Shown one piece after another: positions 1,628-21,425 of a DNA stretch of 23,065 bases (position 1 is its first letter; each line of letters begins with the position of its first letter). The position numbers and the translations under genes were made by a program. Below the pieces are notes generated by a model that was not told the origin of the DNA, did not search any database, and saw only the letters and a program-made list of their open reading frames with translations. The DNA comes from a virus, in IMG/VR virus record IMGVR_UViG_3300046096_000040, positions 1 through 23,065 of that record; one strand, written 5' to 3'.

Positions 1628-3343
1628 ATGAAAGATGATGAACAATCACCTCAAGATAGATTCGCTTTTGTATCAGAATCTTTCGCTACAGATGAAGCAC
1701 ATGCTCAACGTTTATATGAATATGCTTCAAAACATTGGTTATCGTATTCAACACCGATTCTGTCTTTTGGTAGAAACAAGCGTGGTTTACCAATTAGCTG
1801 CTATTTAAATTTTCTAGATGACACGTCTGAGGGTCTGGTAAACAACTTATCTGAAACCAACTGGTTATCAATGATGGGTGGTGGTGTAGGTGTACACGTA
1901 GGTATTCGTGGTTGCGATGATAAATCTGCAGGTGTGATGCCACACTTAAAAGTATATGATGCATCTAGCTTGGCTTATAAGCAGGGTACGACTCGGAGAG
2001 GATCATATGCCGCCTATCTAGATATTAGTCACCCCGATATTACACAGTTCCTAGAGATGCGTAAACCAACAGGTGATCAGAATATGCGAACTCTTAATCT
2101 AAATCATGGTGTAAATATCAGTGATAAATTTATGCAAATTATTGAACGTTGTATGGTTGATCCTATAGCAGATGATTCTTGGGAGCTTGTACAACCACAC
2201 AGTGGTAAAGTAACTGAAGTTGTATCTGCCAAAGCACTCTGGATGAAGTTGCTTGAGTTGCGTATGCAAACGGGTGAACCATATTTGTGGTTTATTGACA
2301 GAGCAAATGAAGGTTTACCTGAGTATCAAAAGAAACTTGGTTTGAAGAATCACGGTTCTAATTTATGCAGTGAGATTTCACTGGCAACATCAAAAGAACG
2401 TACAGCGGTTTGTTGTCTCAGTTCGTTAAACTTGGAATATTTTGATGATTGGAAAACAGATACACAATTTATTCCTGATGTATTAGAAATGCTGGACAAT
2501 GTTATTGAATACTTTATTCAGAATGCTCCTGATGAAATTGCAAGAGCCAGATTTAGTGCAATACAAGAGCGAAGCGTAGGTGTAGGTGCTTTGGGCTATC
2601 ATGCTTATTTACAAAAAAATAACATTGCATTTGAAGGCGCATTAGCTAAAAGTACAAACATGCGAATGTTTAAACATATCAGATCGCAGCTTGATGATGC
2701 AAATGAGAAACTTGCTTTACTTCGTGGCCCTTGTCCAGATGCAGCAACTATGAATGTAATGAAGCGTTGTAGTCATGTAATGGCTGTAGCACCTAATGCA
2801 TCAAGTTCTATTATTATGGGTAATACATCACCTAGCATTGAGCCTTATTCAGCAAATGCTTATCGTCAAGACACTACCTCTGGTGCATTCTTAAATAAGA
2901 ATAGATTCTTAGATAAGATCATTAAAGATGAAGCATTGAAACATGAAGAATCTTGGTACGATGATACATGGGCAAGTATTATTGCAGATGATGGTTCTGT
3001 GCAGAATCTTGAATGGATGGATCAATACACTAAAGATGTATTTAAAACTGCAGCTGAGATTGACCAACGTTGGATTATTGAGCAAACATCTGACAGACAA
3101 CAGTTTGTAGATCAGGCGATCAGCACAAACTTATTCTTTAGACCAGATGTTAGTGTAAAGTATTTACATGCCGTTCACTTTCAAGCTTGGAAACAAGGAT
3201 TAAAATCTTTGTATTACGTTCGCAGTTCTAAACTACGTAAAGCTGATAAAGTTGGTCAGAAGGTTGAGCGCAAACGAATTGAGGATGAAATCGACATGTC
3301 AGCATTAGTTAACAACGAAACTTGTTTAGCTTGTGAAGGTTGA
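1628..3343 (+). CDS. nrdA: class Ia ribonucleoside-diphosphate reductase large subunit (NrdA), N-terminus displaced
   Basis: This is the catalytic subunit that reduces NDPs to dNDPs together with NrdB. As read from ATG 1628 it has 571 residues. It lacks the ATP-cone domain of cellular NrdA (761 residues in E. coli), as short phage forms do, so dATP shut-off of overall activity is probably absent. Catalytic residues are present: C58 in GLPISCYLNF and C262/C263 (redox pair), the thiyl-radical site N245, C247, E249 in SNLCSEIS, the radical-transfer Tyr pair in SLYYVRS near the C-terminus, and the terminal C566-x-x-C569 that exchanges with thioredoxin. The PNASSSIIMGNTSPSIEPY loop is intact. The frame is open from 1580 and RLKESYM upstream of 1628 fits NrdA, but the true start at 1569 is in another frame. 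The ATG at 1628 has only a weak A/G-rich site (AAAAGAA), so re-initiation after the stop at 1605 would be needed. Confidence 0.9.
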   Translation: MKDDEQSPQDRFAFVSESFATDEAHAQRLYEYASKHWLSYSTPILSFGRNKRGLPISCYLNFLDDTSEGLVNNLSETNWLSMMGGGVGVHVGIRGCDDKSAGVMPHLKVYDASSLAYKQGTTRRGSYAAYLDISHPDITQFLEMRKPTGDQNMRTLNLNHGVNISDKFMQIIERCMVDPIADDSWELVQPHSGKVTEVVSAKALWMKLLELRMQTGEPYLWFIDRANEGLPEYQKKLGLKNHGSNLCSEISLATSKERTAVCCLSSLNLEYFDDWKTDTQFIPDVLEMLDNVIEYFIQNAPDEIARARFSAIQERSVGVGALGYHAYLQKNNIAFEGALAKSTNMRMFKHIRSQLDDANEKLALLRGPCPDAATMNVMKRCSHVMAVAPNASSSIIMGNTSPSIEPYSANAYRQDTTSGAFLNKNRFLDKIIKDEALKHEESWYDDTWASIIADDGSVQNLEWMDQYTKDVFKTAAEIDQRWIIEQTSDRQQFVDQAISTNLFFRPDVSVKYLHAVHFQAWKQGLKSLYYVRSSKLRKADKVGQKVERKRIEDEIDMSALVNNETCLACEG

Positions 3344-20440: not shown

Positions 20441-21265
20441 TTATGTTCCATGTCTGTCGGTGTAACCTGCACCATTAGCATTTAATTGTTCTATTTGTTC
20501 TTTTCGCCATTGACAAGCTAGACGGAAAGCTTCTTCTTTACCGTACTTTGAGATGCTGAAAGATTTAGATAATATTATACCTTTCATGTCCGTTACAGAT
20601 GCACGGTATGTACCCTTCATACCACCCGATATTCCTGTCATACCTGTCGAATTTCTTTTATCAATTTTTAAATTTCTTCTGTTTGCTTCATGAGAGACTT
20701 GTCTGAGGTTTGCCAAAGAATTATCTGATGGGTTTCCGTTTATGTGATCAATTATTTTTAAACTATCAATTGTTTTATTAGCTAAAAGATAAATAATCCG
20801 GTGAACTTTTACACCCTTTCGTTCATGTGTTATGTGCCAAGAACCATCTGCACTTTTTACACCAGCAATAGAGTCTTTAGGATTACTTAACGAGCAATAG
20901 TTTTTACCAGCATACACATCAATTTTAAATCTCAACCCTGATGGACTACTTTCATCTATGTAAAATTTTTGATTGAAAGTATCATAATCAAGTTCTTTAG
21001 TTGTAGATGATGACGTAACTAGGTTAACAAGAGAACTTTTATATTCTTGTATAACTTCTGTCTCTAATTTAAGAGCCTCTTCCTTACTAAGAGAATCTTT
21101 GATAATTTCTACAATAAATCCACCAGCCTCTTTAACTACTTTATTCCAAGCTTTTAATTTTCTTGTTGCACAGTAAGGTCTTTTTAAAGTACCTTGTCCT
21201 GCATAGAAAATTTCATTATTATCTTTACGTCTGTGTAAGTAAACACAGTATTTATTATCTTGCAT
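20441..21265 (-). CDS. free-standing homing endonuclease: GIY-YIG + HNH + AP2
   Basis: The ATG at 21265 is chosen (GGGAG 6 bases upstream) over a GTG at 21286; this gives 274 residues. Residues 6-26 (YCVYLHRRKDNNEIFYAGQG) are a GIY-YIG motif with Y9, Y21, G23, R29 and a later helix Glu at E68. Residues about 102-190 are an HNH_3 domain with H155, D173-H174 (IIDHINGNPSDN), and N186 in NLR. Residues about 208-262 are an AP2-like DNA-binding domain (GMTGISGG ... YRASVTD ... RLACQWRKEQ). Two nuclease types in one chain is uncommon. It interrupts the usual capsid-to-adaptor spacing, with its own promoter and folded leader, as expected for a mobile nuclease gene. Capsid and adaptor look intact, so this is an intergenic insertion. 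Confidence 0.9.
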   Translation of the reverse strand: MQDNKYCVYLHRRKDNNEIFYAGQGTLKRPYCATRKLKAWNKVVKEAGGFIVEIIKDSLSKEEALKLETEVIQEYKSSLVNLVTSSSTTKELDYDTFNQKFYIDESSPSGLRFKIDVYAGKNYCSLSNPKDSIAGVKSADGSWHITHERKGVKVHRIIYLLANKTIDSLKIIDHINGNPSDNSLANLRQVSHEANRRNLKIDKRNSTGMTGISGGMKGTYRASVTDMKGIILSKSFSISKYGKEEAFRLACQWRKEQIEQLNANGAGYTDRHGT

Positions 21266-21282
21266 AATTTCTCCCGAAATCT

Positions 21283-21346
21283 CCACTAAAAGACAATTAG
21301 CAGGACGGTGGATAGTCGTCTTTTCGGTGGGCCAACCTAGCTAATT
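21283..21346 (-). promoter_or_regulatory. leader RNA able to form an H-type pseudoknot before the endonuclease start
   Basis: On the - strand, stem 1 pairs AATTAGC (21346-21340) and GG (21337-21336) with CC (21304-21303) and GCTAATT (21301-21295). Stem 2 pairs CCAC (21330-21327) and AAAAGAC (21324-21318) with GTCTTTT (21294-21288) and GTGG (21286-21283). The arm order is S1, S2, S1', S2', which is a pseudoknot, with S1' and S2' touching and able to stack. The SD (GGGAG, 21275-21271) follows by 7 bases. A competing pair CCGAAA/TTTCGG (21327-21322 with 21279-21274) would reach into the SD. Control of endonuclease translation is inferred. Confidence 0.6.
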
Positions 21347-21348
21347 TT

Positions 21349-21409
21349 ATCTAACATTAATCCTGAATTATAACACATTAAATGTTACAACGCAAGACTA
21401 ATGTTAGAT
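21349..21409 (-). repeat. 11-bp inverted repeat bracketing a promoter, with a nested palindrome
   Basis: ATCTAACATTA (21349-21359) and TAATGTTAGAT (21399-21409) are perfect inverted repeats centred at 21379. Inside, ACATTAAATGT (21375-21385) is an odd palindrome centred at 21380. All four half-sites share ACATT/AATGT. The promoter elements lie between the arms, so the array resembles operator sites for a symmetric DNA-binding protein; a large hairpin is the alternative. Confidence 0.75.
21367..21395 (-). promoter_or_regulatory. promoter of the homing endonuclease gene
   Basis: On the - strand TTGCGT (21395-21390), a 17-bp spacer and TATAAT (21372-21367), with TGT before it as an extended -10. 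The predicted start near 21360 leads to a leader of about 95 bases. It is enclosed by the inverted repeat at 21349-21409. Confidence 0.7.
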
Positions 21410-21425
21410 GCCTCAGTTAAGAGGC
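21410..21425 (-). promoter_or_regulatory. small GCCTC/GAGGC hairpin
   Basis: GCCTC and GAGGC (21425-21421 and 21414-21410 on the - strand) form a 5-bp stem with a 6-base loop. Its arms match the core of the larger hairpin at 21443-21464, so an alternative pairing between the two is possible. Confidence 0.5.

What the first reader, a model, noticed from the sequence alone, without database searches (positions are those of the whole stretch)
21283..21346. Possible pseudoknot leader controlling the homing endonuclease
Seen: two stems of 9 and 11 bp interleave as S1-S2-S1'-S2' with no base between S1' and S2', just ahead of the SD; a third pairing (CCGAAA/TTTCGG) would compete and touch the SD. 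Two interlocking stems of this length in 64 bases are unlikely by chance (not computed). Known: expression of phage homing endonucleases such as I-TevI is held down by RNA structure over the ribosome site. Inference: a folded switch, or a small structured RNA with its own role.
Basis: partly seen in the sequence, partly recalled or inferred. Interest (0 to 1): 0.6.

Follow-up and report, generated by a model that had tools for sequence, protein, structure and literature searches.

The report
Phage leader RNA before homing endonuclease
The flagged stretch is a known but unexplained phage RNA (int-alpA) that sits at the start of a homing-endonuclease message; comparing over 170 relatives shows that one of its loops can pair either with a harmless spacer or with the ribosome site, and another loop is built to stick to a second copy of itself, so it looks like a widespread, possibly dimer-sensing, on/off switch for phage protein synthesis.

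Summary
On the minus strand, 21347-21280 is a member of Rfam RF02996 (int-alpA; 39.5 bits, cut-off 35.8), directly ahead of a GIY-YIG/HNH/AP2 homing endonuclease (ATG 21265). The supported fold is a three-way junction (P1, P2, P3) plus a different pseudoknot: the P3 loop L3 pairs with D1 just past P1 (z 36; replicated in three collections). In most members L3 can also pair with D2, at the Shine-Dalgarno site. Elements lie at promoters and 25-50 nt before a start codon (133/172, 7.6% at random), mainly of DUF1376 replication proteins and HNH endonucleases. So it is a cis translation leader, not obviously the sRNA Rfam types it as. The related phage DC31 lacks leader and endonuclease together, so they form one cassette. 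New: P2 loops are self-complementary far beyond chance (0/2000 shuffles, two collections) and sometimes the retroviral kissing loop GACG. This predicts RNA homodimers. Switch direction, ligand and dimer function are untested; in the window itself D2 is weak.

The parts
21280..21347 (-). int-alpA RNA (Rfam RF02996), whole model 1-71
   Evidence: 39.5 bits, gathering 35.8, E 4e-5 for the window
21340..21346 (-).
   Evidence: pairs 21301-21295; P1 covaries across 176 elements
21295..21301 (-). P1 3' arm GCUAAUU
   Evidence: as above
21338..21339 (-). junction J1/2 UA, conserved
   Evidence: kept in CM-found members whose P2 differs
21326..21337 (-). P2 hairpin GGU[UGGCCC]ACC; loop 21334-21329 holds the palindrome GGCC
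   Evidence: third P2 pair covaries; P2 loops self-complementary family-wide
21321..21325 (-). junction J2/3 GAAAA, conserved
21304..21320 (-). P3 hairpin GACG[ACUAUCCAC]CGUC; L3 = 21316-21308
   Evidence: four pair types at P3 positions; GACG/CGUC, GAACU/AGUUC, GAACG/CGUUC, GAGG/CCUC in homologous HEG leaders
21302..21303 (-). junction J3/1 CU, conserved
   Evidence: mean T 0.44 over linkers; TTTT in 48 of 176 only, so not a regular terminator
21282..21286 (-). D1 GUGGA, pairs with L3 UCCAC (21312-21308): true pseudoknot
   Evidence: L3-D1 z 36 over 164 elements; hold-out z about 20; 6 of 6 pairs with double changes, 0/500 shuffles
21267..21280 (-). P4 hairpin AUUUC[GGGA]GAAAU with the SD in its loop
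   Evidence: in the minimum-energy fold; P4 arms covary family-wide, 10.07 vs 8.93, sd 0.16
21271..21275 (-). Shine-Dalgarno GGGAG (D2 position; weak UCC/GGA match to L3 here)
   Evidence: sequence; L3-D2 z 14.7 family-wide; only -3.3 kcal/mol in the window
20441..21265 (-). homing endonuclease (weak GIY-YIG, HNH_3, AP2), ATG start
   Evidence: Pfam HNH_3 7.9e-12, AP2 1.5e-7, GIY-YIG 6.5e-4, the last two just below cut-off
21367..21395 (-). promoter-like TTGCGT-17-TATAAT (TG one base before the -10 box); predicted start about 21360
   Evidence: sequence (the -35 box has only 3 of 6 consensus bases, so the tool's scan does not list it); upstream region 91% identical in DC31 up to the RNA's 5' end; TATAAT-like hexamers enriched just upstream of family members
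20441..21346 (-). inferred inserted cassette: leader RNA plus endonuclease
   Evidence: absent between MCP and next gene in Limnohabitans phage DC31; similarity stops at the RNA's 5' end and resumes at the next gene's SD

Best explanation
The feature is an int-alpA (RF02996) leader RNA that acts in cis on translation of the homing endonuclease behind it. Shown by comparison: P1, P2 and P3 form a three-way junction with conserved UA, GAAAA and CU joints; the P3 loop L3 pairs with D1 just downstream; in most members L3 is also complementary to a second, near-repeat segment D2 that lies at the Shine-Dalgarno site in the loop of a small hairpin P4; leader and endonuclease are missing together from a related phage. 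Inferred: L3 holds either D1 (SD free, translation on) or D2/SD (translation off), so D1 is a decoy that competes with the SD for L3. Inferred with less confidence: the self-complementary P2 loops let two transcripts kiss, and dimer formation biases the L3 choice, so that expression depends on transcript dose. In this window D2 is weak, so here the SD may instead be limited by P4 or by the competing S2/CCGAAA pairings.
For: RF02996 match. L3-D1 and L3-D2 permutation tests, discovery, GTDB hold-out with null control regions, third set collected without P2-loop sequence; formal pair count with all six pseudoknot pairs doubly changed and 0/500 shuffles. Start codon 25-50 nt downstream in 133/172 against 7.6% at random positions; TATAAT-like hexamers peak 10-19 nt upstream. 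Downstream DUF1376 22/113 and HNH_3 13/113, at most 1/112 each among random ORFs of the same loci. Empty site in DC31. Same leader at the same site in L004, L005 and P26059A although the endonucleases are only 79, 43 and 35% identical. A second endonuclease of the L004 phage has its own copy. P2 self-complementarity z 22, none with other leader regions except a weak 2.8 with the linker.
Against: No expression or probing data. Rfam types the family as sRNA. The direction of the switch cannot be read from sequence. A short-L3 subfamily ahead of primases lacks the L3-D1 pairing.
Confidence: 0.7

Rival explanations
1. One reading: S1 and S2 form the functional pseudoknot, with CCGAAA/UUUCGG as a competing switch arm over the SD.
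For: Both stems exist in this sequence; S2 plus P4 is the minimum-energy nested fold.
Against: No covariation of the S2 analogue in 176 elements (z 1.9); AAAAG-linker pairing above P 0.5 in 2 of 176; S2 weaker in five homologous HEG leaders; interleaved stems in 2% of shuffles.
Confidence: 0.06
2. Trans-acting small RNA, as Rfam types it: the junction is a stand-alone transcript ended by P1 plus a U tract, and L3 targets other mRNAs.
For: Rfam type 'Gene; sRNA'; pyrimidine-rich linker after P1.
Against: TTTT in only 48 of 176 linkers; start codon at a fixed short distance in 133/172; L3 covaries with its own downstream leader.
Confidence: 0.1
3. A riboswitch: the conserved joints UA, GAAAA and CU plus the L3-D1 pseudoknot form a pocket for a small ligand or host protein that decides between D1 and D2.
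For: Joints stay fixed while stems vary freely; aptamer plus SD-site expression platform is the usual layout; found in phages of Pseudomonadota, Bacillota and others. Not exclusive of the best explanation.
Against: Downstream genes share no metabolite theme; nothing points to a ligand; a strained junction alone could explain the fixed joints.
Confidence: 0.2
4. Guide RNA of the HNH nuclease, as in OMEGA/HEARO systems.
For: RNA adjacent to an HNH gene.
Against: No RuvC or other RNA-guided nuclease domain found; the same RNA precedes DUF1376, Rha, integrase and other genes.
Confidence: 0.01
5. Small self-cleaving ribozyme that trims the message.
For: Compact junction with invariant unpaired bases and a pseudoknot.
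Against: No known ribozyme model matched; the P3 loop-D1-D2 covariation and start-codon spacing are explained by translation control instead.
Confidence: 0.03

Closest known systems
Rfam RF02996 int-alpA RNA
   Same: Matches the whole model above the cut-off; same P1/P2/P3 junction and joints.
   Different: Rfam calls it an sRNA and models only P1-P3; here it leads a homing endonuclease and shows L3-D1, L3-D2 and P4, which the model does not contain. The name suggests an int/alpA context, which is not the context here.
RBS-sequestering RNA hairpins of T4 I-TevI, I-TevII, I-TevIII, segB and Aeh1 mobE (PMC2988022)
   Same: RNA structure at the SD of a phage homing endonuclease, inferred to limit its translation.
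   Different: Those are hairpins that bury the ribosome site (for I-TevI only on early and middle transcripts); this is a conserved junction-pseudoknot shared with non-endonuclease genes, with the SD in a loop and alternative partners.
Translational riboswitches with pseudoknots over the SD
   Same: Aptamer-like conserved joints, pseudoknot, SD-site expression platform.
   Different: No ligand known; L3 has two competing targets in tandem; no metabolic gene theme.
Retroviral dimerisation loops (HIV-1 DIS palindrome, MuLV GACG tetraloop; PMC5874298, PMC7357161)
   Same: Hairpin loop that is self-complementary while its sequence varies; long loops show one or two unpaired bases before a 6-nt palindrome, and GACG tetraloops occur.
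   Different: No evolutionary relation; dimerisation is predicted here, not shown; the window's loop has a 4-nt GGCC only.

Membership tests
Rfam RF02996 int-alpA | score at or above the gathering threshold over the full model | tested here: met
   39.5 vs 35.8 bits, model 1-71
Rfam RF02996 int-alpA | three-way junction with joints UA, GAAAA, CU | tested here: met
   all three present at 21339-38, 21325-21, 21303-02; P1 and P3 supported by compensatory changes
Rfam RF02996 int-alpA | acts as a trans sRNA (Rfam type) | not testable with these tools
   only indirect: no regular terminator, fixed distance to a start codon
Rfam RF02996 int-alpA | context between int and alpA (name only, from memory) | tested here: not met
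   lies between MCP and a structural gene, ahead of a homing endonuclease; not a structural criterion, so membership stands
T4-type RBS-sequestering endonuclease hairpin | stable stem that buries the SD | tested here: not met
   SD is in the loop of P4, 5-6 bp
T4-type RBS-sequestering endonuclease hairpin | structure absent from a late transcript started inside it | tested here: inconclusive
   the only clear promoter seen lies upstream of the whole element
Riboswitch | specific ligand binding changes the fold | not testable with these tools
   no probing data
Kissing-loop RNA dimer | self-complementary hairpin loop conserved as such | tested here: met
   26/42 and 28/38 distinct loops with a palindrome of 4 or more, null 10.4 and 10.7, 0/2000; self z 22; but the common UUAGCG class has only a 2-nt GC core
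Kissing-loop RNA dimer | dimer forms in solution | not testable with these tools
   needs native gel or SEC
OMEGA/HEARO guide RNA | partner is an RNA-guided RuvC/HNH nuclease | tested here: not met
   GIY-YIG, HNH_3, AP2 only

The most novel reading that the evidence does not exclude
int-alpA RNAs are dimer-sensing translational switches: two copies of a phage leader kiss through palindromic P2 loops, and dimerisation shifts the P3 loop between its decoy D1 and the ribosome site D2, so that phage and mobile-element genes (replication initiators, antirepressors, integrases, homing endonucleases) are translated according to how many copies of their own transcript are present, with no protein or metabolite needed.
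Probability: 0.35. Interest if true: 0.88.

Novelty: new variant of a known kind. Interest (0 to 1): 0.7.

Why it matters
int-alpA is named in only one paper of the open-access full-text library searched. The data give it a location (5' end of messages), a complete fold with two competing targets, a gene census and a testable mechanism, in an element found in 70 of 301 genomes sampled from one bacterial family. If the P2 palindromes mean dimers, it would be a widespread natural mRNA leader that counts its own copies, built with the same loop types that retroviruses use to pair their genomes. It also suggests that homing endonucleases travel with their own translational control.

Tried and rejected
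S2 as the conserved second stem: no covariation. CCGAAA/UUUCGG as a general switch arm: only in the window and L004. Intrinsic terminator or sRNA end: U runs in a minority of linkers. P2 loop pairing with another part of the leader: tested against L3, upstream, D1/D2 and coding (z -0.0 to 0.8), linker 2.8. GACG as the universal P2 tetraloop: true of the CM-found 4-nt loops (8 of 8), but a pattern without loop sequence shows that UUAGCG/UAGC is commoner, so I dropped 'universal'. Energy of the window alone: z -0.57 and +0.96, uninformative. D6E/AP45 as a second empty site: AP45 lacks both RNA and HNH gene, but the junction is blurred. Weinberg et al. 2017, the presumed source of the motif, could not be read. 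The first chance count required maximal stems and missed the window's own pair; replaced.

Full report
What is there. The window is a 23 kb phage fragment related to Limnohabitans phage DC31 and Curvibacter phage P26059A. On the minus strand the order is decoration protein D, major capsid protein (Phage_cap_E, ends 21466), a promoter-like sequence, the flagged RNA, and a 274-aa homing endonuclease with HNH_3 and AP2 domains and a weak GIY-YIG domain. The mechanical GTG start at 21286 lies inside the RNA; ATG 21265, five bases after GGAG, is the better start.

Identity. cmscan finds one Rfam family in the window, RF02996 int-alpA, at 21347-21280 minus, 39.5 bits against a cut-off of 35.8. Its fold is a three-way junction: P1 AAUUAGC/GCUAAUU, joint UA, P2 GGU[UGGCCC]ACC, joint GAAAA, P3 GACG[ACUAUCCAC]CGUC, joint CU.

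Which fold is real. Homologous endonuclease leaders were found in IMG/VR (L004, L005, L093, L112) and in P26059A. P3 reads GACG/CGUC, GAACU/AGUUC, GAACG/CGUUC and GAGG/CCUC in these, with compensation; S2 falls from -14.0 kcal/mol to between -6.6 and -10.1. Over 176 distinct elements the S2 analogue shows no covariation (z 1.9), while P1 and P3 positions use up to four pair types. Interleaved 7+7 stems occur in 2% of dinucleotide shuffles of the 64 nt. In the window alone, nested folding does choose S2, so S2 may exist as a local competitor in this one RNA, but it is not the conserved structure.

The pseudoknot. Each P3 loop was scored against its own downstream segment and against those of other elements. 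Discovery set: L3-D1 14.68 against 8.62 (sd 0.23), L3-D2 12.55 against 9.14 (sd 0.23), n = 84. GTDB hold-out: 14.09 against 8.94 (sd 0.25) and 12.98 against 10.30 (sd 0.24), n = 76, with coding and upstream control regions null. A third set, collected with no P2-loop sequence in the pattern, gives 15.1 against 9.65 (sd 0.44), n = 43; some loci overlap the first set. Elements are not fully independent, so the z values are descriptive. A formal count on eight aligned elements gives 6 of 6 pseudoknot pairs with changes on both sides, 0/500 shuffles and a collapse on sliding. In the window L3 UCCAC pairs with D1 GUGGA. D2 is a partial repeat of D1, about ten bases on, at the Shine-Dalgarno purines, often in the loop of a hairpin P4. 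In the window P4 is AUUUC[GGGA]GAAAU and D2 is weak.

Cis leader. Of 172 elements 133 have an ORF of at least 60 aa starting 25-50 nt downstream; random positions on the same strand give 7.6%. TATAAT-like hexamers peak 10-19 nt upstream of the core, 57 against about 8 per bin. Downstream genes are DUF1376 replication proteins (22 of 113), HNH_3 nucleases (13), NUMOD, AP2, Rha, KilA-N, antirepressors, primases and integrases; random ORFs of the same loci give at most one of 112 for DUF1376 or HNH_3. RF02996 occurs in 70 of 301 genomes sampled from the family of one Comamonadaceae genome and 3 of 299 in a Bacillota sample centred on the Parageobacillus genome. It also occurs in named phages: GF-2, Tyrion, Ab105-2phi ahead of Rha, D6E ahead of an HNH gene, and E. 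coli prophages.

A cassette. In DC31 the intergenic region after the capsid gene is 91% identical to the window up to the RNA's 5' end, and similarity resumes at the SD of the next gene; RNA and endonuclease are both absent. The simplest reading is that leader and endonuclease were gained together (or lost together). The relative L004 carries a second int-alpA copy ahead of another GIY-YIG-like endonuclease, named from its sequence only.

P2 loops. P2 loops vary widely in sequence and length but are self-complementary: 26 of 42 distinct IMG/VR loops and 28 of 38 GTDB loops hold a palindrome of at least four (null 10.4 and 10.7; 0 of 2000 shuffles each), and 14 of 34 loops of seven or more bases hold one of at least six (null 1.6). 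L3 loops show the opposite tendency. P2 loops match themselves (z 22) and no other part of the leader beyond a weak 2.8 with the linker. Elements found by the covariance model with a 4-nt loop all have GACG (8 of 8; the model itself slightly prefers it), a tetraloop that forms homodimers by two base pairs in murine retroviruses (PMC7357161, PMC5874298). An unbiased pattern shows that a UUAGCG loop, with only a GC core, is also very common. Homodimerisation by kissing loops is therefore a prediction with good statistical support and no experiment.

How it probably works. Transcription starts near P1; P2, P3 and P1 fold first, L3 captures D1 as it emerges, and D2/SD follows. L3 on D1 leaves the SD free; L3 on D2 covers it. 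Dimerisation or a bound factor would shift this balance. The order of events and the sign of the switch are inference. T4 endonucleases are known to be held back by RNA structure at the ribosome site (PMC2988022), so limiting the endonuclease is a plausible benefit, by another device.

Limits.

Noticed in passing
window 21371-21387 and 21350-21410, minus: Operator-like inverted repeats around the promoter: TAACATTTAATGTGTTA in the spacer/-10 region and CTAACATTA...TAATGTTAG flanking it. The outer repeat changes with compensation in L004 (CTAACGTAA...TTACGTTAG) and is present in DC31; the inner one occurs exactly once in the window.
   Followed up: partly
L016, L064, L089, L107, L122 (primase-like genes): A short-L3 subfamily lacks L3-D1 pairing; instead CUCGGAAU downstream could pair with AUUCCGA at P2/J2-3. 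Possibly a different wiring of the same device.
   Followed up: no
L138 1199-1300 (Pseudomonas phage VB_PaD_phPA-G): An int-alpA leader is followed by ATGAGTTATGAC at the usual distance where no gene is annotated; the record has a gene on the opposite strand there. Possible missed or mis-stranded gene.
   Followed up: no
L004/L009 contig IMGVR_UViG_3300048573_000149: One phage carries two homing endonucleases, each with its own int-alpA leader with different P2 (one with a GACG tetraloop).
   Followed up: partly
window 1628-3343: Ribonucleotide reductase large chain of 571 aa with only a partial N-terminal domain match; P26059A annotates an alpha subunit of about 900 aa. Possibly shortened or split.
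   Followed up: no
RF02996 in L005, L012, P26059A, D6E: Clear members score 28-35 bits, below Rfam's cut-off of 35.8, so the family is under-counted and its sRNA label may need review.
   Followed up: partly
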